From Microbacterium sp. AG238 (lineage in GTDB: Bacteria; Actinomycetota; Actinomycetes; Actinomycetales; Microbacteriaceae): a DNA stretch of 64,000 nucleotides. Shown piece by piece: positions 10,514-63,159 of this stretch (positions are counted from its first letter, which is position 1; the number at the start of each line of letters is the position of its first letter). The stretch is from positions 2,108,001 to 2,172,000 of the forward strand of contig NZ_RAQC01000001.1 in the NCBI RefSeq assembly GCF_003610405.1. Reading direction: 5' to 3'. The notes beneath the pieces were generated by a model, which saw only the letters and a list, made by a program, of their open reading frames with translations, did not search any database and had not been told where the DNA came from. The position numbers and the translations under genes are program-made.

Positions 10514-11896
10514 TCAGGGCAGGCGTGACACCAGGTCGTCGGCGAGGCCGGCGTAGGTCGCGGGCGTCAGTGCCAGCAGGCGCTCCTTGGCGGCATCACC
10601 GATGTCGAGCCCACGGACGAACTCGGCGAGCTCGGATCCGCCGACGCGGCGGCCACGGGTGAGGTCCTTCAGGAGCGCGTACGGATCGGTGATCTGCGAG
10701 CGACCGGCGGCGATCTCGGCGCGGACGACGGTCTGGATCGCCTCGGCGAGCACCTCCCAGTTCGCGTCGAGATCTTTCAGGAGCACGTCGCGCGACAACG
10801 AGATCTCGGTCAGCCCGCGCTGCAGGTTGTCGAGGGCGAGCAGCGAGTGACCGAAGGCGACGCCGATGTTGCGCTGCGTCGTCGAGTCGGTCAGGTCGCG
10901 CTGCATCCGGCTCGTGACGAGCGTCTGCGCGAGGGTCGAGAACAGGCCGCCCGAGATCTCGAGGTTCGCCTCGGCGTTCTCGAAGCGGATCGGATTGATC
11001 TTGTGCGGCATCGTCGACGACCCGGTCGCGCCGGCGACGGGGATCTGCGCGAAGAAGCCGAGCGAGATGTAGGTCCAGACATCCGTGGCGAGGTTGTGCA
11101 GGATGCCGCCGGCGTGCCGGACGCGGTCGTAGAGCTCGACCTGCCAGTCGTGCGACTCGATCTGGGTGGTCAGGATGTTGAAGTCGATGCCGAGGCCCTC
11201 GATGAACGAGCGCGAGAGCTCGGGCCAGTCGACGTCGGGCTCCGCCGCGAGGTGCGCGGACCAGGTGCCGGTGGCGCCCGAGAACTTCGCGAGGTACTCG
11301 CCGCCCTCGATCTGCTTGGCGACGCGGGCGAGACGCCAGGCGAACACGGCGATCTCCTTGCCCATCGTCGAAGGGGTCGCGGGCTGACCGTGCGTGCGCG
11401 AGAGCATCGTGGCGTCGCGGTGCTCGCGGGCGAGGTCGCCGAGCGCGTCGATCACTGCCTGCAGCTTCGGCAGCCAGACGTTCTCGACGGCACGCTTGAC
11501 CGTGAGGGCGTAGGAGGCGGAGTTGATGTCCTCGCTCGTGCAGGCGAAGTGGGTCAGTTCGGCGATCGCGTCGAGGCCGAGGGCCGACAGGCGATCGCGA
11601 ACGAGATACTCGACGGCCTTCACATCGTGGCGGGTGACCGCCTCCTTCGCCGCGAGCCAGTCGATCTCGGTCTGTCCGAAGTCGCGGTACAGCCCGCGCA
11701 GCTGCGTCTTGTGCTCATCCGAGAGAGGCGAGCTGCCGAACAGGCTCCGGTCGGTGAGGGCGATGATCCACTCGACCTCCACCTCGACCCGCGCGCGGTT
11801 CAGACCGGCTTCGGAGAGGTAGTCGGCGAGGGAGCCGACGGCGGCGGCGTAGCGACCGTCGAGGGGGCTCAGGGGCTGCGGGGGCAGAGAGGTCAC
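10514..11896 (-). CDS. purB: Adenylosuccinate lyase
   Basis: 460 residues of the fumarase/aspartase superfamily. PurB splits adenylosuccinate to AMP and fumarate, and SAICAR to AICAR and fumarate, in purine synthesis in the cytoplasm. The superfamily signature is GSSTMPHKINPIRFENAE with the mobile catalytic Ser in the SSTMPHK loop. The HTHGQPAT-type motif appears as SRTHGQPATPSTMGKE, and TSEDIN is also present. Length is normal for the family. The ATG start begins MTSLPPQPLSPLDGRY, as in other actinobacterial PurB. The phosphatase gene ends 27 bp upstream on the same strand. Confidence 0.96.
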   Translation of the reverse strand: MTSLPPQPLSPLDGRYAAAVGSLADYLSEAGLNRARVEVEVEWIIALTDRSLFGSSPLSDEHKTQLRGLYRDFGQTEIDWLAAKEAVTRHDVKAVEYLVRDRLSALGLDAIAELTHFACTSEDINSASYALTVKRAVENVWLPKLQAVIDALGDLAREHRDATMLSRTHGQPATPSTMGKEIAVFAWRLARVAKQIEGGEYLAKFSGATGTWSAHLAAEPDVDWPELSRSFIEGLGIDFNILTTQIESHDWQVELYDRVRHAGGILHNLATDVWTYISLGFFAQIPVAGATGSSTMPHKINPIRFENAEANLEISGGLFSTLAQTLVTSRMQRDLTDSTTQRNIGVAFGHSLLALDNLQRGLTEISLSRDVLLKDLDANWEVLAEAIQTVVRAEIAAGRSQITDPYALLKDLTRGRRVGGSELAEFVRGLDIGDAAKERLLALTPATYAGLADDLVSRLP

Positions 11897-12545: not shown

Positions 12546-12848
12546 ATGACCTCTCCTCACCTGCTCGTTCCGGACGCCGCGCGGCTCGATGCTGCCGCGG
12601 TGCGGACGCTCGAGATGATCGCGGTGCTGCGCTCGCGCCTGCCCTCCCTGCGCGACGAGCTCGACGCGGTCCGGCGCCGCGCCGCCGAGCTCCAGCACGA
12701 GACGGCCTGGCGCGCACGGGCGGCGAGCGACTACCGCTCGCGCCTCGACGCATGGCGCGCGTGGGCGGATGGGGTCGCGGCTCGCGTCGATCAGCTCGAC
12801 GACGAGCTGCGCCGGGTTCAGGTCCGGCTCGTGGCGGGCGGCCCGTGA
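12546..12848 (+). CDS. Small helical, WXG100-like protein
   Basis: A 100-residue protein beginning MTSPHLLVPDAARLD, almost wholly predicted helix, in two long segments around a short turn near TAWRARAASDYRSRLDAWR. Size, helical hairpin pattern and spacing of Trp and small residues resemble ESX/WXG100-type secretion partners, but the exact W-x-G is absent (TAWRA). Its stop codon overlaps the GTG of the following hydrolase gene, so the two are translationally coupled. No type VII ATPase or membrane gene is in the window. The assignment is structural guesswork. Confidence 0.6.
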   Translation: MTSPHLLVPDAARLDAAAVRTLEMIAVLRSRLPSLRDELDAVRRRAAELQHETAWRARAASDYRSRLDAWRAWADGVAARVDQLDDELRRVQVRLVAGGP

Positions 12849-14179
12849 GGTCCGTGAGCGACGACTCCCTCGACATCCGCGACGGTGGGGTCATCGCCGT
12901 CGATACGGGGCAGCTCCGGGCCGCGGCATCCGTGCTCGTCGGGCTGTCGACGCGATGCGACGCACTTCGGTCGACGTTCGAGACGGGCACGCGCGAGCTC
13001 GCCGCGCACGATGCGACCGCGTGGCCTGCCGCGGCCGTCGCCGTTGATCTCGCCCGCGTTCTCCATGAGCTCGCGGTCGAGGCCTCGGCTCTCGCCGGAG
13101 GATTGCGGGATGCCGCCGACGTCTACGACATCGTCGAGCTCGAGGTGTCGCGACGGGCCGCCGCGGACGGCGATCGCCGGGTGACGGCGCTCCTCGATCA
13201 CCGCATCGCCGAGGCGCGCGAGCGCTCACCGAGCGCCGGCGGCCGCGCCGACCTGCTGCTGATGACGTGGCCGTTACTGCGGCACGGTGAGCTTCAGCGC
13301 CAGATCGGCGGCGCCACCGTCCCGCTGGGTCTGCTCGGCGGCGCGGCAGTCGCGGCCGGCGGCCTCGCCCTGACGGCTCTCGGAGCGCTCGGGCTGGGGC
13401 GTACGCCGCCCGCGCGGGGCGGGCCCGGGTCGGTCGGAGGTGCTGGGCCGGCGCCGCTCGTCGAGGTCGCCCGGTCGGCGGCGCCACCGGGATCGGCCTC
13501 GCCGCCGCTCACCCTCGCGACGCTCGCCGAGCGCATCCCGCGCGAGGGTGATCAGCTGCGCGTCGAGCGGTACACCGTCGCCGGAGGCGAGAGGCGCTTC
13601 GCCGTCTACGTCGCCGGAACCCGATCGCCGCTCGGCTTCGGCGGCCGCGAACCGTTCGACATGTCGTCGAACGTTCAGCTGTACGCCGGCCGCACCTCGG
13701 CGTCGTACGAATCGGTGGTCACCGCTCTCCGAGCGGCCGGTGCTCGCTCGGGTGACGCCGTACTCGCCGTCGGGTACTCCCAGGGCGGCGCGATCACGTC
13801 ACGGCTCGCGTTGGACGGACCCTTCCGCGTCGTCGGCAACGTGACCTTCGGCTCGCCGGTGCAGGCGGATCCCGGTGTCTCCACGGTCCAGGTCACGCTG
13901 CGGCACACCGACGACCTCGTCCCTGCCCTGCAGTCCGGCGGCCACCTCGATCGTGCCGGGGCGCCGGGCAGCATCGTCGTCGAGCGGATCGCCGATCCAC
14001 CGCCCGGCATCGCGGACATCACGCTCGGCGCTCACTCCATGGACGCGTACGGAGACACCGCCTCGCTCGCCGACGCGTCGGGCGATCCCCGCGTCGGAGA
14101 CGTCCACGAGCGTCTCGCGCAGTTCGTGGGCGATGAGCCCGCGGAAGTCACGACCTACCGTGTGCAGCGGCCCGAGTGA
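12845..14179 (+). CDS. Helical-domain, membrane-anchored alpha/beta hydrolase
   Basis: About 444 residues. The N-terminal ~130 residues are helical and WXG-like in composition. A long hydrophobic Gly/Ala-rich segment lies at about 158-184 and is followed by a Pro/Gly-rich linker. The C-terminal third (from about 235) is an alpha/beta hydrolase: nucleophile elbow GYSQGG with Ser312, candidate Asp in RHTDDLVPAL (356/357) and His397 in TLGAHSMDAY. This fits a lipase, esterase or PE-PPE-like hydrolase tethered at the membrane. The GTG at 12845 overlaps the upstream stop (GTGA); the GTG at 12854 is the alternative. Coupling with the preceding small helical protein suggests an export-partner relation, unproven. 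Confidence 0.7.
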   Translation: MRSVSDDSLDIRDGGVIAVDTGQLRAAASVLVGLSTRCDALRSTFETGTRELAAHDATAWPAAAVAVDLARVLHELAVEASALAGGLRDAADVYDIVELEVSRRAAADGDRRVTALLDHRIAEARERSPSAGGRADLLLMTWPLLRHGELQRQIGGATVPLGLLGGAAVAAGGLALTALGALGLGRTPPARGGPGSVGGAGPAPLVEVARSAAPPGSASPPLTLATLAERIPREGDQLRVERYTVAGGERRFAVYVAGTRSPLGFGGREPFDMSSNVQLYAGRTSASYESVVTALRAAGARSGDAVLAVGYSQGGAITSRLALDGPFRVVGNVTFGSPVQADPGVSTVQVTLRHTDDLVPALQSGGHLDRAGAPGSIVVERIADPPPGIADITLGAHSMDAYGDTASLADASGDPRVGDVHERLAQFVGDEPAEVTTYRVQRPE

Positions 14180-14230: not shown

Positions 14231-14632
14231 TCAGCGGCGGTCGGCGTCGCGACGAGGGCGGAACAGGATGCCGGCGACCCAGTTGATCAATGCGATGACG
14301 ATGGCCGCGAGCACAGCGACCCAGAAGCCGCCGATGCGCAGGCCCCAGTCCCAGCCCGAGGTCACCCATCCGGTCAGCCACAGCAGGAAGCCGTTGATGA
14401 TGAACGAGATCAGGCCGAGGGTCAGGATGTACAGCGGGAACGCGAGCACCTTCAGCACAGTGCCGACGACCGCGTTGACCAGCCCGAAGATGAGGGCGAT
14501 CAGAAGCAGTGTGAGCACGAGCTGCAGGTCACCGCCCGGCGGGAACGCCACGACCGACACCTCCAGCGCCGGGATCAGCGTCACGATCCAGACCGCGAAG
14601 GCGTTGACGATCAGTCGGATGATGAGGCTCAT
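14231..14632 (-). CDS. Phage holin family 4-like membrane protein
   Basis: 133 residues with four hydrophobic segments. It begins MSLIIRLIVNAFAVWIVTLI and contains FGLVNAVVGTVLKVLAFPLYILTLG-type sequence, matching the PF04020 phage_holin_4_2 / YvlD-like family. Despite the name these are ordinary chromosomal membrane proteins; no phage genes are near. The start ATG at 14632 begins the first membrane helix; the longer frame adds charged residues of no known match. Confidence 0.82.
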   Translation of the reverse strand: MSLIIRLIVNAFAVWIVTLIPALEVSVVAFPPGGDLQLVLTLLLIALIFGLVNAVVGTVLKVLAFPLYILTLGLISFIINGFLLWLTGWVTSGWDWGLRIGGFWVAVLAAIVIALINWVAGILFRPRRDADRR

Positions 14633-14704: not shown

Positions 14705-15769
14705 GTGACCGACCTGCCCGTGCGCATCCGACCCGAGATCGCGGCCCTGCCCGCATACCGCCAGGGCCGTCAGGCCTCAGCCGACGCTTTCAAGCTGTCG
14801 AGCAACGAGAACCCCTTCGACCCGCTGCCCGGCGTCGTCGAGGCCGTGCGCGCGGCGACCACGTTCAACCGGTACCCCGACGCCTCGGCGGGCCGCCTGC
14901 GCTCGCGGCTCGCAGACCGTTACGCGGTCGCGCCCGATGGTGTGCACGTGGCCGCCGGATCGGTGTCGATCCTGTACCAGCTCGCGTCGGCCACGAGCGG
15001 CCCGGGAGACGAGATCATGTTCGCCTGGCGGTCGTTCGAGGCGTACCCGGGGCTCGCGACCGTCGCCGGAGCGACCGCCGTCGCCGTGCCGCTGGCCGCT
15101 GACGCCGGACACGATCTCGACGCGATGGCGGATGCCGTCACCGACCGCACGCGGATGATCATCGTCTGCAGCCCCAACAACCCGACCGGGCCCGTCGTCA
15201 GCCAGGCGGCCTTCGACGCGTTCGTCGCGCGCGTCCGCTCCGACGTCCTCATCGTCCTCGACGAGGCCTACGCCGAGTTCGTCACCGATCCGGATGCCGT
15301 CACCGGCGCCGCCGTGCTCGCCGCCGGCCACGCCAACGTGGTGGTGCTGCGCACCTTCTCGAAGGCGTACGGACTCGCCGGACTTCGCGTCGGATACGCC
15401 ATCGGCGACCACCGCATCCTCGACGCGGCCCGCAGCACCGGCATCCCGCTCTCGGTCACGGCCCAGGCCGAGGAAGCCGCGCTCGCGAGCCTCGACGCCG
15501 AGGACGAGCTGCTCGAACGGGTGCGTCACATCGCCGTGCGCCGCGACGCGCTCGCCGACCGGTTGCGCGAGGCCGGCTGGGACGTCCCGGTCGCGCAGGG
15601 CAACTTCGTCTGGCTGCCCGCGGGCGAGCGGGCGCTCGAGATCGCGGAGGCCTTCGACGCGGCGGGCCTGATCGTCCGGGCGTTCGCCGGCGACGGAGTG
15701 CGCATCTCGGTGGGCGAGGAGGAGTCGATCGAGCGGATCGTCGCGGCCGCGGCATCCGTCGTCGGCTGA
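14705..15769 (+). CDS. Histidinol-phosphate/aromatic aminotransferase
   Basis: 354 residues, PLP-dependent fold type I. The N-terminal KLSSNENPF motif, the Asn of SPNNPTGP (about 158), the Asp of VLDEAYAEF (186) and Lys220 in [16 protein letters not shown], which carries the Schiff base, are all present. The family covers HisC and the actinobacterial Pat (phenylalanine aminotransferase). No other histidine genes adjoin it, so Pat-like or dual function is as likely as HisC. GTG start at 14705, just downstream of a TAGACT-like sequence, so the message may be leaderless. Confidence 0.88.
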
Positions 15770-51586: not shown

Positions 51587-53638
51587 TCATGCGGTCGTGA
51601 TGGCCTGCGCGTCGCCGACGGTGTCTCGGACCACGCCCACGGTGTCGATCGCCAGGCCACCCGCCGTCGCCTCGGTGTACGACAGCACAGGCAGACCGTC
51701 CGTCTGCGACGAGATGAGGCGCCGGACGGCGGAACGCAGCGACGGGGCGCACACGAGCACAGGCTCCGGCCCCGGGCCGGCCGCCTCCAGAGCGGCGCGT
51801 GTCGAGGCCACGACCGCCTCGAGCCGATGCGGGTCGAGCGCGATGTGCGGGCCGTCCTCGCTCGGCCGCATGGCCTCGAGCATCGACTGCTCGAGCAGCG
51901 GGTCGATCATGACGATGCGCAGCCGCCCCTGCTCGGCGAACCGCGTCGCAACGGCGGGACCGAGGGCGAGGCGCGCGGTCTCGATCAGGGCGTCGGGGTC
52001 CGCCGTCGTCTTGGCGCGCAACGCGAGTGCCTCGTAGATCCGGGTCAGGTCGTTGATCGGGATGCGCTCGGCGAGAAGGCCTTGCAGCACGCGCTGCACC
52101 TCGGCGAGCGACAGCAGCGCCGGCGTGAGCTCTTCGACGGCCGCGGGGCTGGACTGACGCAGCGTCTCGGTGAGCTGGCGGACGTCTTCGCGGCTGAGCA
52201 GTCGGGCGGCGTGGGCCTGGATGACGGACGAGAGGTGCGTGATGATGACGCTCGCGCGGTCGACGACCGTCGCGCCCGCGAGCTCGGCGCTGTGCCGCAT
52301 CTCGAGGGGCACCCACTTGCCGTCGATCCCGAAGACCGGGTCGGGCGACGACCGGCCGGGCAGGGTCTCGAGCCCCGAGCCGAGGGCGAGGAGCGAGGCC
52401 CGAGGCGCGACGCCGCGACCCGCCTCGATCCCGGCGACCCGGATGACGTAGGTCGACGGCGGCAGTTCGATGCTGTCGCGCGTGCGGACGGGCGGAACGA
52501 TGAGTCCGAGCTCGAGAGCGGTCTTGCGTCGCAGCGCCCGCACGCGTCCGAGCAGGTCGTCGGGGCCGCCGGTGACGAGGTCGACGATGTCGGGAGCGAG
52601 CAGGATCTCGAGCGCGTGCACCCGCATCCGCTCGGCCAGCTCCTCGGGGGTGTCGACGGCGCCGCGAGGATCGACGGCAGGGGCGTCCTCGGCAGCCTGG
52701 GTCTGCTCGCGGCGCCCGACCCGCTGCGCGATGAGCAGCAGGGTCGCGCCGATGACGAGGAAGGGCAGCATCGGCATCCCGGGGATGAACGACATCACGA
52801 TCGCCGCGCCGCCCGCGATCGACAGGGCGTTGCGCGACTGCGTCAGCTGCGCCGCCGCGGCCGAGCCCATGTCGGACTCCGCCCCCGACCGGGTGACGAT
52901 CATGCCCGTCGCGACCGCCATCAGCAGCGCGGGGATCTGCGTGACGAGGCCGTCGCCGATCGTGAGGAGGGCGTAGGTGTTGAGGGCCTCGCCCGCCTCC
53001 ATGCCCTTCGAGAGCATGCCGATCGCGACCCCGCCGACGAGGTTGATGATGATGATGACGAGTCCGGCGATCGCGTCGCCCTTGACGAACTTCGAGGCGC
53101 CGTCCATCGCGCCGTAGAAGTCGGCCTCGGCAGCGATCTCGGCGCGCCGGCGCCGCGCTTCGGCGTCGCTGATGAGACCGGCGTTGAGGTCGGCGTCGAT
53201 CGCCATCTGCTTGCCGGGCATCGCGTCGAGGGTGAACCGGGCGCCCACCTCGGCGACGCGCTCGGCGCCCTTCGTCACGACGACGAACTGGATGACGATG
53301 AGGATCAGGAACACCACGATGCCGATGACGAGCGATCCGCCCACGGCGATCGCGGCGAACGCGTCGATGACCTGTCCCGCGTGCGCCTCGCCCAGCACGA
53401 GCTTCGTCGAGGCGACGTTCAGGCCGAGCCGGAACAGCGTCGCCACCAGCAGCAGTGAGGGGAAGACCGCGAAATCGAGCGGCCGCTTCACGAACATCGC
53501 CGTCAGCAGGATCAGCAGGGCGAACAGGATGTTGGTGATGATGAGGACGTCGAGGATCGGCGGCGGCACCGGCACGATCAGCAGCATGATGATGCCGACG
53601 ACCCCGATCGGCACGAGCGACCTTCTCAGGATGTTCAT
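51587..53638 (-). CDS. flhA: Flagellar export component FlhA
   Basis: 683 residues: about eight membrane segments in the first half, the conserved cytoplasmic FHIPEP loop (VGARFTLDAMPGKQMAIDADLNAG, GAMDGASKFVKGDAIAG), then the large cytoplasmic C-terminal domain that docks export chaperones. FlhA forms the nonameric ring of the flagellar type III export gate. ATG at 53638 overlaps the flhB stop by 4 bp. Length is normal. Confidence 0.96.
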   Translation of the reverse strand: MNILRRSLVPIGVVGIIMLLIVPVPPPILDVLIITNILFALLILLTAMFVKRPLDFAVFPSLLLVATLFRLGLNVASTKLVLGEAHAGQVIDAFAAIAVGGSLVIGIVVFLILIVIQFVVVTKGAERVAEVGARFTLDAMPGKQMAIDADLNAGLISDAEARRRRAEIAAEADFYGAMDGASKFVKGDAIAGLVIIIINLVGGVAIGMLSKGMEAGEALNTYALLTIGDGLVTQIPALLMAVATGMIVTRSGAESDMGSAAAAQLTQSRNALSIAGGAAIVMSFIPGMPMLPFLVIGATLLLIAQRVGRREQTQAAEDAPAVDPRGAVDTPEELAERMRVHALEILLAPDIVDLVTGGPDDLLGRVRALRRKTALELGLIVPPVRTRDSIELPPSTYVIRVAGIEAGRGVAPRASLLALGSGLETLPGRSSPDPVFGIDGKWVPLEMRHSAELAGATVVDRASVIITHLSSVIQAHAARLLSREDVRQLTETLRQSSPAAVEELTPALLSLAEVQRVLQGLLAERIPINDLTRIYEALALRAKTTADPDALIETARLALGPAVATRFAEQGRLRIVMIDPLLEQSMLEAMRPSEDGPHIALDPHRLEAVVASTRAALEAAGPGPEPVLVCAPSLRSAVRRLISSQTDGLPVLSYTEATAGGLAIDTVGVVRDTVGDAQAITTA

Positions 53639-54726
53639 CGGGGTGCCTTCCTCTCGGGAACGGTGTGGACGCCGCGTGCCGCGCCGCGGCGCTTGAGCCC
53701 GTCGACGAAGACGAGCACGCGGGCGACGGCGGTGTAGAGATCGCCGGGGATCTCCTGGCCGAGCTCGCACGCGCCGTGCAGGGCACGGGCGAGCGGGATG
53801 TCGCGGACGAGCGGGACGCCGGCCTCGTGTGCCCGCTCGCGGATGCGTTCGGCGATGAGGCCCTGCCCCTTCGCGACGACCCGCGGCGCCGACTTGCCGG
53901 GCTCGTAGCGCAGCGCGACGGCGATGTGCGTGGGGTTCACGAGCACGACATCCGCATCTCCGACGGCGGCGATCATGCGGTTTCGGCTCATCGCCATCTG
54001 CCGGGCGCGGCGCTGGCTGCGGATGAGCGGGTCGCCCTCGGAGTTCTTGTGCTCGTCGCGCGCTTCCTTCTTCGTCACGCGGGTGTGCTTGCGATTGCGG
54101 CGCATGACGACGAGGACGTCGATCGCGGCCAGCAGGATGCCGACGGCGACGGCGGTGATGAGCAGCGCGGTCACGACGTTCGAGGCGATCTCGAGCAGCC
54201 GGGTGATCGGGTGGGCGCCGCTCATCGTGAGCACGGGCATGAGACCGGCGACGACGAACCACAGGGCGAGGCCGATGGCGGCGGTCTTGAGGAGCGCCTT
54301 CGCGCCTTCCCAGAGGGCCTGCAGGCCGAAGAGCCGCTTGACGCCGTTCAGCACGTTGAACTGCTCGAAGCGCGCCGGCACCCCGCGCAGATGGACGCCG
54401 CCCTGGGCGACCGACCCGACGATCGCGACGATCGCGACGGCGAGCAGCGCCGTGCCGACGACGGCCGGGATGCTGCCGAGCGCCGACGACAGGACGGCGA
54501 CGGCGTGCTCGGGGTCGGGGTGGCGGATGACGGCGGCGATCTCGACGAACTGCGCGGCCCCGGCATCCGCGCCCGCCCCGATCATGGCGGGGAGGACCAG
54601 CGCGACGGTGCCGATCGCGAGCCAGGCGGACAGGTCCTGGCTGCGCGAGAGCTTGCCCTTGCGATGAGCCTCGCGCAGCTGCCGGCGGCTCGCCTGCTCG
54701 GTGCGTTCCCCGCTGTCGCTGCTCAT
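53635..54726 (-). CDS. flhB: Flagellar export switch FlhB
   Basis: 363 residues, four membrane segments and a C-terminal cytoplasmic domain with the self-cleaving NPTH motif (Asn264-Pro265). FlhB changes export specificity from rod/hook to filament proteins when the hook reaches length. ERTEQASRRQLREAHRKGK at the N-terminus is typical. 13 bp after fliR. Confidence 0.95.
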   Translation of the reverse strand: MSSDSGERTEQASRRQLREAHRKGKLSRSQDLSAWLAIGTVALVLPAMIGAGADAGAAQFVEIAAVIRHPDPEHAVAVLSSALGSIPAVVGTALLAVAIVAIVGSVAQGGVHLRGVPARFEQFNVLNGVKRLFGLQALWEGAKALLKTAAIGLALWFVVAGLMPVLTMSGAHPITRLLEIASNVVTALLITAVAVGILLAAIDVLVVMRRNRKHTRVTKKEARDEHKNSEGDPLIRSQRRARQMAMSRNRMIAAVGDADVVLVNPTHIAVALRYEPGKSAPRVVAKGQGLIAERIRERAHEAGVPLVRDIPLARALHGACELGQEIPGDLYTAVARVLVFVDGLKRRGAARGVHTVPERKAPR

Positions 54727-54739
54727 GAGGCGCCGCCGT

Positions 54740-55501
54740 TCATCGGGTTCCGCCGATCAGCAGGCCGGTCGCCTGGTCGGTGAGCGCCCCGACGACGGCG
54801 GGCAGGGCGAGGATGACGCTGCCGGCGAGGAGGAACGTCAGGATGATCTTCAGCGGGAATCCGAGCGCGAACGCGTTGAGCGCCGGGGCGACGCGGCTGA
54901 CGAGCCCGAGCGCGATGTCGGCGAGGAAGAGCACGAGCAGCAGGGGACCGGCGATCTGCAACGCGGCCACGAGCAGCTGCGACGCCGTGTCGACCAGCAG
55001 CTCGACCGGGCGGGCGAGGTCGAGCATCCCGTCGACGGGGACGGCCGTGAAACTCCGGGCCAGCCCCGCGAGGATGAGCTGGTAGCCGTTGCTCGCGAAG
55101 AGCAGGGCGAGGGCGATCATCTGGAACAGGCGCGTGAACTGGGCGCCGTTGACGTTCATCTGCGGATCGAAGCCCTGCGCGAGCTGGAATCCGCCGAAGA
55201 CGTCGATCAGGCCGCCGGCCGACTGCACGACGGCGAAGCACGTCATCACGAGGAAGCCGAGCAGCGCCCCCGTGACGACCTGAGCGGTCAGGGCGAGGAA
55301 GAAGGCGCCGGTGTCGAGGCTCTGGTAGCCCGGCGCCACCGTGCCGCTGAGGGCGAGGGCGACGCCGATCGCGACCATCGCCTTGATGCGGGCCGGGAAA
55401 GCGCCGTACGAGAAGGGCGGGGCCGTGAAGACGAAGGCGGTCGTGCGGACCGCGGCGAGTCCCGTGGCCTCGATCCAGGCGAAGTCGAGCAGCAGCTGCA
55501 T
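54740..55501 (-). CDS. fliR: Flagellar export component FliR
   Basis: 253 residues with about six membrane segments, beginning MQLLLDFAWIEATGLAAVRT, with PARIKAMVAIGVALAL and GFDPQMNVNGAQFTRLFQMIA family stretches. With FliP and FliQ it makes the export channel at the membrane. ATG at 55501, one base after the fliQ stop. Confidence 0.93.
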   Translation of the reverse strand: MQLLLDFAWIEATGLAAVRTTAFVFTAPPFSYGAFPARIKAMVAIGVALALSGTVAPGYQSLDTGAFFLALTAQVVTGALLGFLVMTCFAVVQSAGGLIDVFGGFQLAQGFDPQMNVNGAQFTRLFQMIALALLFASNGYQLILAGLARSFTAVPVDGMLDLARPVELLVDTASQLLVAALQIAGPLLLVLFLADIALGLVSRVAPALNAFALGFPLKIILTFLLAGSVILALPAVVGALTDQATGLLIGGTR

Positions 55502-55502
55502 C

Positions 55503-55778
55503 TCAGCCGCCCGAGAGCAGGTGCGGGATGCGGTCGAACATGGTGTGCGTGAAGGCGATCGCCTCGGCGATCATCCAGTGCCCGCACACGACGAGTGCGA
55601 TCGCGACGGCGACGGCCTTCGGCACGAACGAGAGCGTGACCTCCTGGATCTGCGTGATCGACTGCAGGAGCGAGATGGCGAAGCCGACCACGAGTGCCGT
55701 GATCAGCAGCGGGGCGGCCAGCTTCGCGGCGAGCACGACGCCCTCCATGCCGATGTCGAGGACGGCCTCAGGGTTCAC
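55503..55778 (-). CDS. fliQ: Flagellar export component FliQ
   Basis: 91 residues with two membrane helices, beginning MNPEAVLDIGMEGVVLAAK, with LLQSITQIQEVTLSFVPKAVAV as the family signature. GTG start at 55778. Packed between fliP and fliR. Confidence 0.95.
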   Translation of the reverse strand: MNPEAVLDIGMEGVVLAAKLAAPLLITALVVGFAISLLQSITQIQEVTLSFVPKAVAVAIALVVCGHWMIAEAIAFTHTMFDRIPHLLSGG

Positions 55779-55790
55779 GCGTGCCCCCGG

Positions 55791-56525
55791 TCATCCGCCC
55801 GCTCCGTAGCTCTCCATGAGCGTGCGGAGGATGAGCCCCCACCCGTCGACGAGCACGAAGAGGAGGATCTTGAAGGGCAGCGAGATCATCACCGGCGGGA
55901 GCATCATCATGCCCATCGACATCAGCGCCGCCGCGACGACGAGGTCGATGACGAGGAACGGGACGAAGATGACGAAGCCGATGATGAAGGCCGCGCGCAG
56001 CTCCGAGATCATGAACGCGGGGATGAGGGTGATCATCGGGACGCTCGCCGGGTCCTGGGGGTTGTCGGCCCCCGCGAACCGGGTCATGAGCGCGAGGTCC
56101 TCCTCACGCGTGAACGACAGCATCCACGTGCGCAGCGGGTCGGAGCCGACGCCCACGGCGTCGGTGAACGTCATCGAGCCGTCGACGTAGGGCTGCACCG
56201 CGACCGTGTTGATCTCGGTGAGCACCGGCCACATCACGAAGAGGGTGAGGAACAGGGCGAGGCCCGCGAGCACCTGGTTGGGCGGGATCGTGGGCAGCGA
56301 GAGGGCGTTCCGGGTCATCGCCAGCACGACGAAGATCTTCGTGAACGACGACATCATGAGCAGCAGCGCGGGGGCGACCGACAGCAGCGTGATGCCGATG
56401 AGCGTGAGCACCGACGACGAGGGCGTTCCGTCGATGCCGTTGATGTCGACCGATACCCCGCCGTTCGGCGGCGGCGCCGAGGCGGCGACGAGCACGAGCG
56501 CGCCGAGCGCGCCGCCCGAGATCAC
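55791..56525 (-). CDS. fliP: Flagellar export component FliP
   Basis: 244 residues with four membrane helices. An N-terminal signal-like hydrophobic stretch is expected for FliP. SSFTKIFVVLAMTRNALSLPTIPPNQVLAGLALFLT-type sequence, split here as SFTKIFVVLAMTRNAL and IPPNQVLAGLALFLT, and MGMMMLPPVMISLPFKILLF are signatures. GTG start at 56525 overlaps the fliO stop by 4 bp. Confidence 0.95.
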   Translation of the reverse strand: MISGGALGALVLVAASAPPPNGGVSVDINGIDGTPSSSVLTLIGITLLSVAPALLLMMSSFTKIFVVLAMTRNALSLPTIPPNQVLAGLALFLTLFVMWPVLTEINTVAVQPYVDGSMTFTDAVGVGSDPLRTWMLSFTREEDLALMTRFAGADNPQDPASVPMITLIPAFMISELRAAFIIGFVIFVPFLVIDLVVAAALMSMGMMMLPPVMISLPFKILLFVLVDGWGLILRTLMESYGAGG

Positions 56526-56986
56526 GCGCCCAGGGCCCGGCGCAGCACCTGTGCGGCATCACGCGCGGTCATGATCGCCGGGCGGGCGGTGCGTTCGGCG
56601 CGGGCCTGCGATCGCAGGAGGGGCACCGGCGGGCTCAGGGGCGCGCCGCCCGCGACATCCCGCAGAGCCGGACGGCTCGTGCCGAGCTCGTCGTGCTCGG
56701 CATCCCGTGACGGGGCATCGGAGGCAGGGTCGATCCGATCGAGCATCGACACGCCGCCCTCGGTGATGCCGAGCACGTAGCGGGCGCCGTCGATCTCGAC
56801 CACGGCGACCTGCGCCTTCGGCCCGATGCCGCGCTTGGCGACGACGGTGATGTCGGTGACGGCATCCGAGCGTGCCGACCTGCGGCTCCGCGCGCCTCTC
56901 GCCCGGGCGCCCGCCGCACCGCCGAGGCCGCCGATGCCGCCGCCGCGCGAGAAGCGGCGCTGCAGCACCCACACGATCGCGAGCAC
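56522..56986 (-). CDS. fliO: Flagellar biosynthetic protein FliO, start uncertain
   Basis: At least 154 residues: an N-terminal membrane segment, a basic region, a small beta domain (VVAKRGIGPKAQVAVVEIDG, YVLGITEGGVSML) typical of FliO, and a disordered tail. FliO helps FliP assemble. The GTG at 56986 is the first standard start in this frame, but it falls in the middle of a hydrophobic run: the codons upstream read DDLLLALRVVVSLGVVLAIV, open back past the fliN stop. A CTG at 57025 or 57022, with GGAGG 13-16 bases upstream, or an ATC at 57034, would give the full helix. Coordinates here follow the conservative GTG. Confidence 0.78.
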   Translation of the reverse strand: MLAIVWVLQRRFSRGGGIGGLGGAAGARARGARSRRSARSDAVTDITVVAKRGIGPKAQVAVVEIDGARYVLGITEGGVSMLDRIDPASDAPSRDAEHDELGTSRPALRDVAGGAPLSPPVPLLRSQARAERTARPAIMTARDAAQVLRRALGA

Positions 56987-57035
56987 GACGCCGAGGGAGA
57001 CGACGACGCGCAGTGCAAGCAGCAGATCGTCGATG

Positions 57036-57686
57036 TCAGGCCTCCGCGTTCTCGATGATCCGCGTGATGCGCACCGCGTAGTCCTGGTCGACGACGACGA
57101 TCTCGCCGTGCGCGATGAGGCGGCCGTTGAGCTTGACGTCGGCGGGGGCGCCGGCCGAACGGTCGAGCTCGATGATGCGGCCGGGCTCGAGGTCGAGCAC
57201 GTCGCGCACGGTCATGCGCGTGCGGCCGACCTCGACCGTCAGCTCCATCTCGACGCCTGCGATGCGCTGCAGGCGACGAGGCGAGGCCGCGGCGGGGTGC
57301 GATACGCGAACCGCGAGGCGCCCGATCACGCGGGCATCCTCGTCGACGAGGTCGAACACCTGCGCGGCGGGGTGCGCGAAGAGCGCCGAGGCGTCTCCGA
57401 TCGTCGCCTCGCCGAGCACGCTCGGGCCGAAGGCCGTCGCGGCGGCGTCGAGGGCGTCGCGCAACCGCTCGTGCAACGGCAGTCCGGCGTCAGCGCCGAC
57501 GAGCGCCGACTCGTCGAACACGACGACCGCGAGCGCCGCGCTCGTGTCGCCGACCGACGAGACGATGACCGCATCGCCGGTCTCGCCCGCGTTCGTGCCG
57601 GGTCGGGCCGTGATGCGCGACGCCGTGGGCAGCCGGTCGGCGAATGCGGCCGCGGCCGCGGCCTCGTGGGTGGTGGTGCTGGTCAT
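57036..57686 (-). CDS. fliN: Flagellar motor switch protein FliN
   Basis: 216 residues. The C-terminal SpoA/FliMN_C domain (about 140-216) has RIAGVEMELTVEVGRTRMTVRDVL, in parts, then LEPGRIIELDRSAGAPADVKLNGRLI. An N-terminal extension of ~130 residues resembles a CheC/FliY-like part (VLGEATIGDASALFAHPAA), so this may be the longer FliN/FliY type. It forms the lower part of the C-ring. ATG at 57686 overlaps the fliM stop by 4 bp. Confidence 0.9.
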   Translation of the reverse strand: MTSTTTHEAAAAAAFADRLPTASRITARPGTNAGETGDAVIVSSVGDTSAALAVVVFDESALVGADAGLPLHERLRDALDAAATAFGPSVLGEATIGDASALFAHPAAQVFDLVDEDARVIGRLAVRVSHPAAASPRRLQRIAGVEMELTVEVGRTRMTVRDVLDLEPGRIIELDRSAGAPADVKLNGRLIAHGEIVVVDQDYAVRITRIIENAEA

Positions 57687-58612
57687 GACGACTCCTCGGA
57701 CAGCGCGGGGGAGAGATCGGATGCCGTCACGACGCACGCGAGGCGCGCGCCGTGCGACCCGATGGCAGCGGATGCGACGACGTGTTCGTCGACGGCGAGA
57801 TCGAGGGGACGCTCGGCCGCGTGTGCGAGCGAGATGACGTCGCCGACCGCGAGGTCGAGGACCTCGGCGGGCCGCACGGCGCGCGGCGCGAGCCGCAGCG
57901 TCACCTCGACGGGGGTCTGCTCGATGTGCCGGCGGACGAGGCCGGGGTCGTTCGTCGCACGCGGCGCCGAAGCGCTGTCGGACAGGCGTTCGAGCAACGT
58001 CGCGGCGGGGAGGGCGATCGTCGCGGTCTCGGTGCGGTCGGCCAGGCGCATCGAGAACCGGGCGACGACCACGAGGTCCTGACCGCCGACGACCTGGGCG
58101 AAGGCGGCGTTGTACTGCACCGCGCCGACGCTCAGCTCGCGGGGCAGCAGCGAGCCGAGGGCCGTGCGGAGATGCCCGAGGGTCTCGTCCATGAGCGACC
58201 GGATCAGCGCCTGCTCGATCGCCGTGAGAGCGCGGGCCTCCGGGCGCTGCGAGCCGTCGCCACCGAGCATCTTCACGATCCACGACAGGGCCGACGGCAG
58301 GGGGAACTCGATGACGGCGCGGTCGTCGGAAGCGGCATCCGAGCACAGCACGAGCGTCGTCGTGGGCGGGACCGTCGCGACGTACTCGTCGTATGTCTCC
58401 AGGCTCACCCGTTCGAGGGCGATGTGCGCGCGCACGCGGGCCTTCGCAGCGAGGAGCATCGCCCACTGACGTGCAAAGGCGTCGAAGGCTCCCGCCAGGG
58501 CGCGCGTGTGCTCTCGGGACAGCGCCGCGGGTCGGCCGAAGTCGTAGCGTTCCGGGGCCGCGGTCGCGGCATCCTCGGTTCGCGCGCTCGGGGCGATCGG
58601 CACGGTCTGCAC
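57683..58612 (-). CDS. fliM: Flagellar motor switch protein FliM
   Basis: 309 residues. YDFGRPAALSREHTRALAGAFDAFA marks the start of the FliM middle domain (split: YDFGRPAALSREHTRAL); ALTAIEQALIRSLMDETLGHL and the C-terminal SpoA domain (VEVTLRLAPRAVRPAEVLDL) follow. FliM passes the CheY-P signal to the rotor. Only 22 residues precede YDF, and the EIDALL-type CheY-binding peptide found in many FliM proteins is not visible. GTG at 58612. A 590-bp gap with repeats separates it from motB. Confidence 0.9.
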   Translation of the reverse strand: MQTVPIAPSARTEDAATAAPERYDFGRPAALSREHTRALAGAFDAFARQWAMLLAAKARVRAHIALERVSLETYDEYVATVPPTTTLVLCSDAASDDRAVIEFPLPSALSWIVKMLGGDGSQRPEARALTAIEQALIRSLMDETLGHLRTALGSLLPRELSVGAVQYNAAFAQVVGGQDLVVVARFSMRLADRTETATIALPAATLLERLSDSASAPRATNDPGLVRRHIEQTPVEVTLRLAPRAVRPAEVLDLAVGDVISLAHAAERPLDLAVDEHVVASAAIGSHGARLACVVTASDLSPALSEESS

Positions 58613-58680
58613 GGCGGGGACTATCGGTCACGCGTGCGGCTCCGTTAGGCGCGGGCCGCGCACGCTCGGCGTCGCGGGCT

Positions 58681-59178
58681 TGGGTTGGGGTGGCAGTTCG
58701 CGCCCGTTCGGGGCCCGGGTTGGGGCGGGAGGTGCCAGCTGGGTGCTGGGGGTGGTGTGGGCTTGGGTTGGGGTGGCAGTTCGCGCCCGTTCGGGGCTCG
58801 GGTTGGGGTGGGAGCTGCCAGGTGGGTGCTGGGGGTGGTGTGGGCTCGGGTTGGGGTGGCAGTTCGCGCCCGCTCGGAGCCTGGGTTGGGGTGGGGGCTG
58901 CCAGGTGAGTGCTGGCCGCGGGCGCGCGCCAGGGTTGGGTTGGCATGTGCTGCACTCAGTGCCCGGTTGGGGCGGGAGCTGGCGGGCAGATGCTGGCTAG
59001 GGCTCTGGTTCGGGCGCGGGCTGGACCAGGGTTGGCAGTGGCTGCCCACTCAGAGCCCGGTTTGGGGCGGGAGTTGCCATCTGGATGCTGGGTGTGGGCG
59101 CGCGTCGGCTTTGGGTTGGCAGTTGCTGCCCGCTCGGGGCCTGGGATGAGGTGGGAGCTGCCAGGTGAGCGCTGGCCA
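58681..59178. repeat. Tandem array of six ~83-bp repeats between motB and fliM
   Basis: Units begin at about 58681, 58764, 58847, 58931, 59027 and 59110; the first three spacings are 83, 83 and 84 bp, the fourth 96, the fifth 83. Each begins TGGGTTGGGGTGGCAGTT or a variant, continues CGCGCCCG and ends with GGAGCTGCCAGGTG or similar, so TGGCAG and CTGCCA can pair as a long weak hairpin. The first three units are most alike and the last three more degenerate. The rest of the motB-fliM gap shows no gene. Low-complexity frames run through it on all strands and are not coding. A related pair lies at 16542-16690. Confidence 0.85.
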
Positions 59179-59199
59179 GCGCGACGGCGCGGCGCGGGG

Positions 59200-60009
59200 T
59201 CAGCCGTCGGCGGCGGCGAGGCCGGCGAGCTCGCCGCGCACCTGGGCGTCGGCATCCGAGAGCACGACGATGTCGACGCGACGGTTCTGGGCGAGGGCCT
59301 CCGCGCTCGACCCCTCCGCGAGGGGCCGCGACGATCCGAAGCCCACCGAGCTGATGCGCTCGCGGGCCACGCCGCGCGCGTCGACGAGGTAGCCGAGCAC
59401 GCCGTTGGCCCGCGCGGTCGAGAGCTCCCAGTTGTCGACGAAGGGCGCGATGGCGGGTCGGGCGTCGGCGTGACCCTCGACCGAGATGAGGTGCGTGTCG
59501 GCGGCGAGAACGGCTCCCGCGGCGTCGAGCACGGCCCGGGCGCGATCGCTCAGGTCGGTGCTGTTGGTGTCGAAGAACGTCTCGGCGCTCACGAGACCGA
59601 TCGTGAGACCCCGGTCGTCGATCGTGAAGGTCGCGGCGTCGCCCAGGCCCTGCTCGGCGAGAGCACCCTCGAGTCGTGAGCGCAGGTCGTCGAGCGAGCT
59701 GTACTCCTGCTCGGCCGGCGTCGGCCCGGTCGGCGTCTCGACGAACCCCTCGCCCTCTTCGTCGATGAGCTCGGGCGGCACGACGACACCCTCCGAGACG
59801 TCACGGGTCTCGGAGATCTCCGAACCGAACCCCGTCGCGAGCGAGGCGCGCAGCTGCTCGAACTTCTCCTGGTCGACGTTGGACATCGCGAACATGACGA
59901 TGAACATGCACATCATCACGGTGATCATGTCGAGGTACGACGCCATCCAGCGCTCGTCGGGGCCCTCGTGCGAGGACTCCATGACGCGGCGGCGACGCGG
60001 CGCGCTCAT
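59200..60009 (-). CDS. motB: Flagellar stator protein MotB
   Basis: 269 residues. N-terminal membrane segment with the ion-carrying Asp27 (WMASYLDMITVMMCMFIVMF), a plug/linker region, and an OmpA-like peptidoglycan-binding domain: VEGHADARPA and NWELSTARANGVLGYLV. With MotA it forms the torque-generating stator. ATG at 60009 overlaps the motA stop (ATGA); ATG at residue 10 is possible too. Confidence 0.95.
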   Translation of the reverse strand: MSAPRRRRVMESSHEGPDERWMASYLDMITVMMCMFIVMFAMSNVDQEKFEQLRASLATGFGSEISETRDVSEGVVVPPELIDEEGEGFVETPTGPTPAEQEYSSLDDLRSRLEGALAEQGLGDAATFTIDDRGLTIGLVSAETFFDTNSTDLSDRARAVLDAAGAVLAADTHLISVEGHADARPAIAPFVDNWELSTARANGVLGYLVDARGVARERISSVGFGSSRPLAEGSSAEALAQNRRVDIVVLSDADAQVRGELAGLAAADG

Positions 60010-60809
60010 ACCCCGGCGTCCGCGGGCTCGTCGGCCGTCGCCTTCGCGCGACCGCGGCCCGGCTTGGTCTCGGGGGCGAGGGCGCGCAAGCGCTCGGCGA
60101 CGAGCATCGGGGGATTGCCCGCTTGGACGGCGAGCATGCCCTCGGTCACGAGCGTCATGCGGTCGACCTCGATCTCGGCGAGGCGCTGCAGGCGGGTGCC
60201 GATCGGCAGCCAGATGAAGTTCGCTGACAGCAGGCCCCACAGGGTGGCGACGAAGGCCGCCGCGATGAGGGGGCCGAGCTGGTCGGGCTTGTCGAGGTAC
60301 TCGAGCACGTGGGTGAGCGAGACGACCGTTCCCACGATGCCGACCGTCGGGGCGTACCCGCCCAGAGCGGAGTAGAACCGCGAGGCCGTGCGGCGCTCCG
60401 CGGCGACGGTGGCGACGCGGTCTTCGAGGACGACGCGGAGGTCTTCGGCATCCGTGCCGTCCGCGATGCTCTGGAGGGCGTGGCGCAGCAGCGGGTCCTT
60501 CTCGTCCGCCACCGCGCTCTCGAGCGCGAGCAGGCCCTCGGCGCGCGCCTTCTCGGCATAACCGACGACGGTGTCGATGAGCGCCTCGGTGGAGCCCTTG
60601 ATGCCGACGAACGCTCGCGGCAGCGCGCGCACGGCGCCCGCGGCATCGCGCAGCGTGCCTCCGGCGATCCCGATCGCGATCGTCGCTCCGAACACCAGCA
60701 CCATCGGCGCCGGCAGCAGCAGGGCGTTGAGGCTCGCCCCCTCGAGCTGGATCATCGCCCACAGGCCGCCGAAGGCCAGCAGGATGCCGATGAGCAGTGA
60801 CGGATCCAT
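60006..60809 (-). CDS. motA: Flagellar stator protein MotA
   Basis: 267 residues, four membrane segments with the large cytoplasmic loop between 2 and 3 (AEKARAEGLLALESAVADEKDPLL in part). GGYAPTVGIVGTVVSLTHVLE and GLLSANFIWLPIGTRL are the conserved channel-lining stretches. ATG at 60809; stop/start overlap with flbD is TGATG. Confidence 0.95.
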   Translation of the reverse strand: MDPSLLIGILLAFGGLWAMIQLEGASLNALLLPAPMVLVFGATIAIGIAGGTLRDAAGAVRALPRAFVGIKGSTEALIDTVVGYAEKARAEGLLALESAVADEKDPLLRHALQSIADGTDAEDLRVVLEDRVATVAAERRTASRFYSALGGYAPTVGIVGTVVSLTHVLEYLDKPDQLGPLIAAAFVATLWGLLSANFIWLPIGTRLQRLAEIEVDRMTLVTEGMLAVQAGNPPMLVAERLRALAPETKPGRGRAKATADEPADAGV

Positions 60810-61075
60810 CAGCGCTCGCCCCCCGTGACCGGGGAGGCCGACCCGGAGGCCGAACCGGATGCCGACCCGGAGGCCGCGGCATGGCCGAGCGCCGTCGCGA
60901 GCACGCGGGCGCGGAAATCGACGATGCTCTGGATGACGGCATCCATCGTCTCGGCGACGACGAACGTCGCCCCGTCGACCAGTGTCAGCGTCGTATCCGG
61001 GCTCGCCTGGATGCGTTCGACGAGGTCGGGGTTCACGGCGAACCGGTGGCGGTTCAGTCGTGTCAGAACGATCAT
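60809..61075 (-). CDS. flbD: Flagellar FlbD family protein
   Basis: 88 residues: MIVLTRLNRHRFAVNPDLVE, VDGATFVVAETMDAVIQSI match the small FlbD family found just before motA in many flagellar operons; role unclear. The tail is a GSAS repeat made by a 12-bp tandem DNA repeat (about 60831-60875), which may be prone to slippage. Confidence 0.9.
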   Translation of the reverse strand: MIVLTRLNRHRFAVNPDLVERIQASPDTTLTLVDGATFVVAETMDAVIQSIVDFRARVLATALGHAAASGSASGSASGSASPVTGGER

Positions 61076-61180
61076 GTCGCCCTTCTCGTCGGTCGGCGCG
61101 TGGGGGATCGGGGTCGTCGCGGGTACGGCGGCTCCGAGAGGACTGTCGGCAGGACGCGGCGGTCGGTTAGCGTTGCGCTC

Positions 61181-61810: not shown

Positions 61811-61820
61811 CCGGCCGCGC

Positions 61821-61902
61821 GCGCAACTCCTCAGAAACCGTCGCAGCCGGCGCCGCCTGCGGGTCATGCGGGCGAACCCACGGGGATTCTGAGGAGTTGC
61901 GC
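61821..61902. repeat. 16-bp inverted repeat with a 50-bp loop
   Basis: Arms GCGCAACTCCTCAGAA (61821-61836) and its exact complement TTCTGAGGAGTTGCGC (61887-61902). It lies between the convergent unknown gene and flgE. Possible bidirectional terminator or a small repetitive element; no other copy was seen in the window. Confidence 0.8.
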
Positions 61903-61912
61903 TCCGCGGCGA

Positions 61913-63073: not shown

Positions 63074-63159
63074 GGTGTGTCCTTCGGTGAGGGGGCTGAC
63101 GTTTTCGGTGGGACTGGCGGGATGCGCGGGGGCGAGGGGCGGGGCGTCGGCGAGGTGAT

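What the first reader, a model, noticed from the sequence alone, without database searches (positions are those of the whole stretch)
12546..14179. Coupled helical WXG-like protein and membrane-anchored hydrolase
Seen: a 100-residue helical protein whose stop overlaps the start of a 444-residue protein with a helical N-terminus, a membrane segment and a GYSQGG hydrolase with a full triad. Known: type VII substrates often come as small helical partners next to a large one with a WXG-type N-terminus and C-terminal enzyme. Inference: an exported or surface esterase with its partner, possibly secreted by a machine elsewhere.
Basis: partly seen in the sequence, partly recalled or inferred. Interest (0 to 1): 0.5.

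Follow-up and report, generated by a model that had tools for sequence, protein, structure and literature searches.

The report
Hydrolase with a type VII-style partner
Two overlapping bacterial genes make a small helical protein and an enzyme that together look like cargo for a type VII-like protein exporter, and their presence in related bacteria tracks an unusually short, separately located export motor rather than the better-known one.

Summary
In this Microbacterium genome a 100-aa gene overlaps a 444-aa hydrolase gene by 4 nt. The small protein is predicted as a hairpin with W55 in its turn; distant relatives carry true WxG, and one passes Pfam's WXG100 and T7SS_signal cut-offs. The large protein has a hairpin ending in YxxxE (Y with D/E in 41 of 44 sequences), a hydrophobic segment and a Ser-Asp-His triad (44 of 44). 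purB lies beside the pair in 20 of 20 chosen family loci.

Across 299 Microbacteriaceae the pair does not track the canonical EssC ATPase (94 of 218 genomes with the pair, 66 of 81 without). It tracks a short, unlinked EccC-like "orphan" ATPase: 197 of 218 versus 5 of 81 (213 of 218 after a looser search of the exceptions). The pair was lost several times; 17 of 19 pair-less sites keep purB and a holin-like gene together. The orphan is a distinct group, shrunk to about 320 aa in some reduced genomes.

Best reading: a dispersed T7SS-like system exporting a partner-bound hydrolase; a new variant of a known kind.

The parts
12546..12848 (+). small partner, 100 aa, WXG100-like helical hairpin
   Evidence: AF2 hairpin 16-52/58-96; PF06013 18 bits, below the 27.3 cut-off
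12708..12710 (+). codon of W55, in the predicted turn of the small protein (WRA here; WxG/WxS/WxA in relatives)
   Evidence: 12 of 12; 42 of 42, but pairs there were picked with a score that rewards the W, and three candidates (L114, L118, L122) were left out, of which L122 seems to have F there and L114 no clear motif
12845..14179 (+). large protein, 444 aa (or 441 from GTG 12854): helical hairpin, hydrophobic segment, alpha/beta hydrolase
12905..13162 (+). N-terminal helical hairpin (residues 21-106)
   Evidence: overlays EsxA 3zbh Z 8.8, 1.8 A over 90 residues (helical bundles reach such Z easily)
13124..13138 (+). YxxxE motif Y94-D-I-V-E98
   Evidence: 12 of 12; Y with D/E in 41 of 44, D/E in 44 of 44
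13325..13381 (+). hydrophobic segment, residues 161-179, possible anchor
13463..14176 (+). alpha/beta hydrolase domain, residues 207-444
13778..13780 (+). codon of S312 (GYSQGG nucleophile)
   Evidence: 44 of 44
13913..13915 (+). codon of D357, proposed triad acid
   Evidence: 44 of 44
14033..14035 (+). codon of H397, proposed triad base
   Evidence: 44 of 44
10514..11896 (-). purB, syntenic landmark
   Evidence: label recalled; beside the pair in 20 of 20 chosen Microbacteriaceae loci L222-L241
11924..12430 (-). low-molecular-weight tyrosine phosphatase-like gene, divergent neighbour
   Evidence: label from motif CTGNICRSP, recalled
14231..14632 (-). small membrane (holin-family-like) protein, syntenic landmark
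   Evidence: label recalled
14705..15769 (+). hisC-like aminotransferase, syntenic landmark
   Evidence: label recalled

Best explanation
The two genes encode a type VII-style substrate heterodimer. The small WXG100-like protein pairs in the cytoplasm with the N-terminal hairpin of the hydrolase (inferred), so that W55 of one and Y94xxxE98 of the other form the composite export signal known from PE/PPE and Esx pairs (motifs shown, contact inferred). A short, unlinked EccC-like membrane ATPase (G000:C2:372700-375453, 918 aa, next to a gene that looks like a PP2C phosphatase) recognises the pair and drives it across the membrane (inferred from phylogenetic profile). The hydrolase, often with a hydrophobic segment behind the hairpin that could hold it, then acts on a lipid or ester at the cell surface or envelope (inferred; the triad is shown as conserved, the substrate is unknown). 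The canonical EssC locus at C2:90-110 kb probably serves other substrates encoded beside it.
For: Pair coupled and conserved (wider set, motif-scored). W in 12 of 12, predicted in the turn. YxxxD/E in 41 of 44. In L171 (another family) the small protein, one gene away from the hydrolase, passes the Pfam cut-offs for WXG100 (29.2 vs 27.3 bits) and T7SS_signal (31.8 vs 27). The hydrolase profile weakly hits PE25 (E 0.017-0.026) and EsxA (0.054) by sequence. Profile of 299 genomes: orphan ATPase in 197 of 218 with a strong pair vs 5 of 81 without; 16 of the 21 exceptions carry it on a looser search, and 11 of 11 rechecked pair-less genomes do not. Within genus g46, G045/G116/G171 have both and G221/G263 neither; G221/G263 keep purB-LMWPTP-holin with no called gene between the last two. 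PurB tree: several losses, at least 3 changes forced by starred branches. The orphan is EccC-type: best solved-structure hits are 4nh0 at 7e-91 (listed as FtsK/SpoIIIE; I recall it as Thermomonospora EccC), YukB 8e-69, EccC5 4e-60, FtsK 8e-35; the orphans fall on one side of one branch, 99/95. Composite WxG/YxxxD-E signal: PMC10765036 and PMC7028111, passages.
Against: No physical linkage of pair and orphan was seen where I compared coordinates by eye in the capped match lists. P0001 itself is below the WXG100 cut-off and has WxA, not WxG; only 4 of 42 partners reach E 0.01 with PF06013. Hairpin overlays are not specific, and coiled-coil designs score as well as or better than PE25. Three genomes have the orphan without a detected pair (G061, G172, G249) and 5 the pair without a detected orphan. 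Co-loss could reflect loss of a larger envelope module. Of the other T7SS components only YukD/EccD (PF08817) was searched in this genome, without a hit. Export, pairing and activity are untested.
Confidence: 0.6

Rival explanations
1. The pair is a T7SS substrate pair, but its machine is the canonical EssC-type system at G000:C2:90-110 kb.
For: That locus looks functional: FHA-containing EssC of 1525 aa, a WXG100 protein and a coupled pair with an Abhydrolase_8 domain. Hydrolases matched weakly by the pair's profile lie within about 10 kb of EssC in G018, G043 and G174. In G164 and five genomes of genus g78 the pair itself lies about 6-12 kb from EssC (listed rows only).
Against: Association over 299 genomes is negative: EssC in 94 of 218 with the pair, 66 of 81 without. 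124 genomes have the pair with no clear EssC by my thresholds. Two separate near-linkages among some 85 genera are close to chance expectation (inference).
Confidence: 0.15
2. The two proteins form a helical complex that is not exported: a membrane-attached cytoplasmic hydrolase with a helical cofactor, and the orphan ATPase was lost together with it as part of a general envelope module.
For: No export data; the hydrophobic segment could face either way. In five other genera the orphan lies in a kinase-FN3-MoxR-DUF58-transglutaminase-FHA cluster, which could be a module of its own.
Against: Two T7SS motifs at fitting places in two proteins, and WXG100/T7SS_signal hits in a remote partner. Several reduced genomes of 1.2-1.7 Mb keep both the pair and a mini ATPase.
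Confidence: 0.2
3. An ordinary esterase downstream of an unrelated small helical gene; the resemblance to T7SS substrates is chance among helical hairpins.
For: Fold overlays of two-helix hairpins are unspecific; PF06013 is below cut-off for P0001.
Against: Coupling kept across genera; W in 12 of 12 and YxxxE in 12 of 12 in alignments made without motif selection; 41 of 44 in the wider set; profile association.
Confidence: 0.05

Closest known systems
PE/PPE pairs with PE- or PPE-linked hydrolases (LipY, PF08237) of mycobacterial ESX-5
   Same: adjacent genes; W motif on one partner, YxxxD/E at the end of the hairpin of the other; C-terminal hydrolase on one partner (PMC7028111, passages)
   Different: no PE or PPE match over cut-off and no PF08237 match; mostly one copy per genome and syntenic with purB in the loci examined rather than an expanded family
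WXG100 proteins (EsxA/EsxB, PF06013)
   Same: about 100 aa, predicted hairpin, W in the turn; remote partners have WxG and one passes the cut-off
   Different: here WxA; P0001 scores 18 bits against 27.3; the partner is fused to an enzyme
LXG toxins with Lap partners and TslA lipase (T7SSb; PMC10765036, passages)
   Same: small helical partner plus large protein with an enzyme domain (part recalled)
   Different: here a conserved enzyme kept at one syntenic site, hairpin with YxxxE at the N-terminus; no LXG match in the Pfam scan at E 10
EccC/EssC ATPases, T7SSa-T7SSj (Garrett et al. 2024, PMC11217815; abstract and passages)
   Same: the orphan ATPase is closest to EccC/EssC
   Different: that paper describes four C-terminal NTPase domains in the ATPases of T7SSc-j; the orphan has 918 aa here and about 320-410-aa forms in some reduced genomes; no WXG100 gene was called beside it in the loci (small genes may have been missed)
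PFNA operon of bifidobacteria (PMC8430577, passages)
   Same: kinase, FN3 protein, MoxR AAA-ATPase, DUF58, transglutaminase, phosphatase and FHA genes in a cluster, as beside the orphan in five Microbacteriaceae genera
   Different: an EccC-like ATPase gene closes the cluster here and is not named in the PFNA passages read; in this Microbacterium only the phosphatase-like gene is adjacent

Membership tests
WXG100 (PF06013 / TIGR03930) | about 100 aa helical hairpin | tested here: met
   100 aa; AF2 helices 16-52 and 58-96, mean pLDDT 82
WXG100 (PF06013 / TIGR03930) | W-x-G in the turn | tested here: not met
   W55 is in the turn but the motif is WRA; WxG in relatives such as L040, L049, L111 and L167
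WXG100 (PF06013 / TIGR03930) | profile score over the curated cut-off | tested here: not met
   18 bits vs 27.3 and 17.3 vs 44.85; the L171 partner meets the Pfam one at 29.2 but not TIGR03930 (23.8 vs 44.85)
T7SS substrate pair | W motif on one partner and YxxxD/E on the other | tested here: met
   W55 12 of 12, YxxxE 12 of 12; Y with D/E 41 of 44; the G of WxG is not kept here
T7SS substrate pair | heterodimer | not testable with these tools
   only single proteins can be folded here; two single-chain models were made
T7SS substrate pair | secretion dependent on EccC/EssC | not testable with these tools
   only the phylogenetic profile
PE / PPE families | PF00934 / PF00823 match | tested here: not met
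   PPE 8.6 bits vs 26, E 2.4; no PE row up to E 10
alpha/beta hydrolase superfamily | G-x-S-x-G nucleophile with Asp and His | tested here: met
   S312, D357, H397 in 44 of 44; fold matches to lipases and esterases, weak
alpha/beta hydrolase superfamily | a named Pfam family over cut-off for P0002 | tested here: not met
   Hydrolase_4 13.8 vs 27, Cutinase 12.6 vs 25.9; relatives hit PGAP1 (18 of 44) and Abhydrolase_8 (10 of 44) at E 0.01
EccC/EssC ATPase (orphan at G000:C2:372700) | closest to EccC/EssC rather than FtsK | tested here: met
   223.6 and 217.1 bits vs 75.6 for FtsK
EccC/EssC ATPase (orphan at G000:C2:372700) | NCBIfam equivalog cut-off | tested here: not met
   223.6 vs 778.4 and 217.1 vs 509.15; the genome's EssC misses them too (530 vs 778.4)
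T7SSa or T7SSb | YukD/EccD-type component (PF08817) | tested here: not met
   no hit at E 0.001 in the own genome
T7SSa or T7SSb | EccB, EccE, mycosin, or EssA/EssB/EsaA | not tested

The most novel reading that the evidence does not exclude
A dispersed, minimal type VII-like export system of Microbacteriaceae: one short EccC-like ATPase (two NTPase domains by eye, in some streamlined genomes a single-domain protein of about 320 aa) and one ancient syntenic substrate pair (W-partner plus YxxxE hydrolase), without the usual membrane partner proteins, tied in a number of genera to a kinase-FN3-MoxR-DUF58-transglutaminase-FHA cluster of the bifidobacterial PFNA type.
Probability: 0.35. Interest if true: 0.85.

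Novelty: new variant of a known kind. Interest (0 to 1): 0.6.

Why it matters
Type VII secretion is mostly known from mycobacteria and Bacillota. A hydrolase-partner pair whose hydrolase is found across the order (259 of 297 genomes) and whose presence in one family follows a short orphan EccC-like ATPase would give a core T7SS-like system with a defined enzyme cargo, and in reduced genomes perhaps one of the smallest EccC-type motors. It would also give the PFNA-type kinase/FN3/transglutaminase cluster an export motor. It makes the question 'how little machinery does type VII export need?' testable in a soil bacterium.

Tried and rejected
Canonical EssC as the machine: first candidate, found beside a WXG100 gene, then set back because its presence is negatively associated with the pair.

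Chance linkage: pair and EssC lie about 6-12 kb apart in G164 and in five g78 genomes (listed rows only); by shared ancestry that is two events in some 85 genera, near chance, so not used as support.

EspG-like chaperone: an extra gene lies beside the hydrolase in L166, L171, L182 and L183, between it and the small gene in L166 and L171. Four such proteins gave no Pfam match and two gave no NCBIfam match, so that idea is dropped. EccC-type ATPases of other families as orthologues of the orphan: the tree puts the 8 sampled outside the orphan group and the neighbourhoods seen differ. Order-level profile: among 21 genomes with no EccC-type match under 1e-40, 15 lack the pair; among 276 with one, 23 lack it. 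This is supportive but does not name the ATPase, and only 3 candidates per genome were scored there.

Fold overlays: hairpins match ESCRT-III, LSD1 and designed bundles as well as EsxA/EsxEF; treated as inconclusive. The full-length Foldseek search gave no match under E 0.001; the best rows were lipases, with PPE4 at E 0.5-0.9.

Selection in the numbers: the pair picks used a score that rewards W and YxxxD/E. Of the 58 loci tried there, 6 gave no candidate and 14 more were set aside by eye, leaving 38 for the tally (YxxxD/E in 35 of 38); 2 more had no acceptable start codon. From alignment A3 I further left out L114, L118 and L122 (L122 seems to have F in place of the W, L114 no clear motif), and L007 and L012 as near-copies; from A4 I left out L118, L007 and L012. 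The counts free of motif selection are those. The 'strong pair' line (E 1e-28) and the orphan/EssC thresholds were set by eye after seeing the E-values. All 21 exceptions on the pair side were rechecked, but only 11 of the 76 genomes with neither strong pair nor orphan; among these 11, G263 also has two adjoining frames of 834 and 736 aa that I take for a broken long EssC-type gene. Of the 16 exceptions counted as having the orphan, 8 are placed by the tree, five are weak single-domain ORFs (E 8e-12 to 5e-8) and G254 shows only a 280-aa fragment. The three genomes with orphan and no pair were searched again and stayed without a pair.

Literature: searches on T7SS in this group (listings only) and on WXG100 with Abhydrolase_8/DUF1023 (listing) showed no title or abstract describing this pair or the orphan. 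Two papers in the library hold both 'Microbacteriaceae' and 'type VII secretion'; a passage of one states that Pontimonas has no type VII systems. Subscription journals are mostly not in the library.

Full report
WHAT IS THERE. The window lies in a 3.38-Mb genome; the nearest named relatives of the large protein are Microbacterium (82% best-segment identity to Microbacterium sp. Yaish 1). The small gene (12546-12848, +, 100 aa) and the large gene (12845-14179, +, 444 aa) overlap by 4 nt. The nearest relatives begin at what is GTG 12854 here. In 11 relatives with both genes readable, 10 have a 4-nt overlap and one an 11-nt overlap.

THE SMALL PROTEIN. Pfam WXG100 is its best match but below cut-off (18 vs 27.3 bits). 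In an alignment of 12, W55 is the only invariant residue. AlphaFold2 predicts two helices, 16-52 and 58-96, with W55 in the turn (mean pLDDT 82), the place of WxG in WXG100 proteins (recalled). Here the motif is WRA; relatives show WxS, WxA and true WxG (motif-scored picks). In other families of the order a small gene near the hydrolase reads, for example, YWEGAAAEAF (L167), and the one in L171, separated from the hydrolase by one gene, passes the cut-offs of WXG100 (29.2 vs 27.3) and of the putative T7SS secretion signal domain PF21725 (31.8 vs 27). Of 42 partners scanned, 4 match PF06013 at E 0.01. So it is a diverged relative rather than a clear member.

THE LARGE PROTEIN. It has a helical hairpin (21-53, 60-106), more helices, a hydrophobic segment and an alpha/beta hydrolase domain (mean pLDDT 66, weak in places). 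In 12 sequences Y94 and E98 are invariant. In 44, D/E is present in 44 and Y with D/E in 41; S312, D357 and H397 in 44 of 44. YxxxD/E on one partner next to WxG on the other is described as a composite T7SS signal (PMC10765036 and PMC7028111, passages). A profile of the 44 weakly matches PE25 (E 0.017-0.026) and S. aureus EsxA (0.054) over the hairpin, among coiled-coil designs with equal or better scores, and lipases over the hydrolase. Hairpin overlays with EsxA, EsxEF and PPE4 exist, but such Z-scores are common for helical bundles. A hydrophobic linker segment occurs in 35 of 44.

ANCESTRY. The profile finds the large protein in 233 of 299 Microbacteriaceae genomes (71 of 85 genera, E 1e-3) and in 259 of 297 genomes of the order (77 of 94 genera, E 1e-6). 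purB lies beside it in 20 of 20 Microbacteriaceae loci that I chose, in 11 of 12 loci of named relatives (the 12th is a 3.2-kb contig) and in 12 of 18 loci from other families. It looks like an old, vertically kept locus, not a mobile cassette.

THE MACHINES IN THIS GENOME. PF01580 finds, besides FtsK and a weak 655-aa match, a 1525-aa FHA-containing EssC-type ATPase at C2:92 kb with a WXG100 gene, helical proteins, an RDD-FHA protein and another coupled pair whose large member has an Abhydrolase_8 domain, and a second, 918-aa EccC-type ATPase at C2:373 kb beside a gene that looks like a PP2C phosphatase. The second one's best NCBIfam models are EssC and EccCa (224 and 217 bits, below their cut-offs) with FtsK at 76, and its family profile hits 4nh0, YukB and EccC5 far better than FtsK. 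PF08817 (YukD) has no hit in the genome.

WHICH MACHINE. I scored pair, EssC and orphan in the same 299 genomes and tabulated them. Orphan: 197 of 218 with a strong pair, 5 of 81 without (Fisher 7e-45, which ignores ancestry). EssC: 94 of 218 and 66 of 81, the opposite direction. On a looser search 16 of the 21 exceptions carry an orphan-type ORF (280-1114 aa; 8 of them are placed in the orphan group by the tree; five reduced-genome ones are weak, E 8e-12 to 5e-8; G254 shows a fragment), 5 drafts do not, and 11 of 11 rechecked pair-less genomes show only FtsK with or without EssC-type genes. Corrected on the pair side only: 213 of 218 vs 5 of 81. Two of those five, G174 and G265, have the pair just below my line; G061, G172 and G249 have no detected pair.

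ANCESTRY CONTROL. On a PurB tree of 62 rows the paired label needs 8 changes and the pair-less label 10, 3 of them forced by well-supported branches (quick method, one gene; G249 was put with the outgroup label), so the loss very likely happened several times. In genus g46, G045, G116 and G171 have pair and orphan while G221 and G263 lack both, and G221 and G263 keep purB-LMWPTP-holin with no called gene between the last two. Of 19 pair-less loci inspected (some with a weak hit elsewhere in the genome), 17 keep purB and the holin-like gene near each other without the pair. The 28 orphan ATPase domains lie on one side of one branch against 8 EssC and 8 order-level EccC domains (99/95); some mini forms are long branches.

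NEIGHBOURHOOD OF THE ORPHAN. In five other genera (G006, G021, G023, G058, G079) two stretches together show a cluster: phosphatase, kinase, a 1942-1986-aa protein I label FN3 from its place, MoxR-type ATPase, DUF58, transglutaminase-like protein, FHA protein, orphan (labels by resemblance to the bifidobacterial PFNA operon, and recalled motifs, not by a family scan). In three further Microbacterium genomes and this one the phosphatase-like gene is adjacent. In some reduced genomes the orphan is an ORF of about 320-410 aa with a hydrophobic N-terminus by eye and one ATPase domain (two of them scanned).

READING. Shown: a coupled, ancient gene pair with the two halves of a T7SS signal, a conserved triad, and co-occurrence with a distinct EccC-like ATPase. 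Inferred: pairing, recognition, export, surface action. The hydrolase's substrate is unknown; lipids or esters of the envelope are a guess by fold.

AGAINST IT. Partner below the WXG100 cut-off here; no linkage of pair and orphan seen; profile thresholds chosen by eye; co-loss might concern a larger module; most other T7SS components untested; one-gene tree.

NOVELTY. T7SS variants c-j were described in PMC11217815 (abstract and passages), where words beginning Microbacteri-, MoxR and transglutaminase do not occur in the main text and the ATPases are said to have four NTPase domains. I found no title or abstract on this pair or the orphan in the listings. I call it a new variant of a known kind.

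Noticed in passing
L026:15512-15805 and L026:15802-17493 (G000:C2): Beside EssC another 4-nt-coupled pair has the motifs the other way round: the small protein carries YSDLD and the large Abhydrolase_8 protein carries WWSG near its N-terminus.
   Followed up: partly
L026:8357-8644, L027:7028-7315, L027:11111-11398: Three copies of one WXG100 protein with the same 95-aa sequence, two on contig C1 and one on C2, next to different helical proteins.
   Followed up: no
L024:12844-13131: A WXG100 gene directly beside a groEL-like gene (label recalled), the best PF06013 hit of the genome.
   Followed up: no
L095, L098, L099, L100, L102: EccC-like ATPase ORFs of about 320-410 aa in reduced Microbacteriaceae genomes.
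   Followed up: partly
L160-L164 with L064, L066, L073, L074, L076: PFNA-like cluster (kinase, giant FN3-like protein, MoxR, DUF58, transglutaminase, FHA; labels not scanned) ending in the EccC-like orphan ATPase.
   Followed up: partly
L166, L171, L182, L183: An extra gene of 184-298 aa without Pfam match sits beside the large gene, between it and the small one in L166 and L171.
   Followed up: partly
G018:C6, G043:C3, G174:C12: Weak relatives of the hydrolase lie within about 10 kb of the EssC gene.
   Followed up: no
window 51587-63606: Run of genes that look like flagellar export and motor genes (gene calls; labels recalled).
   Followed up: no
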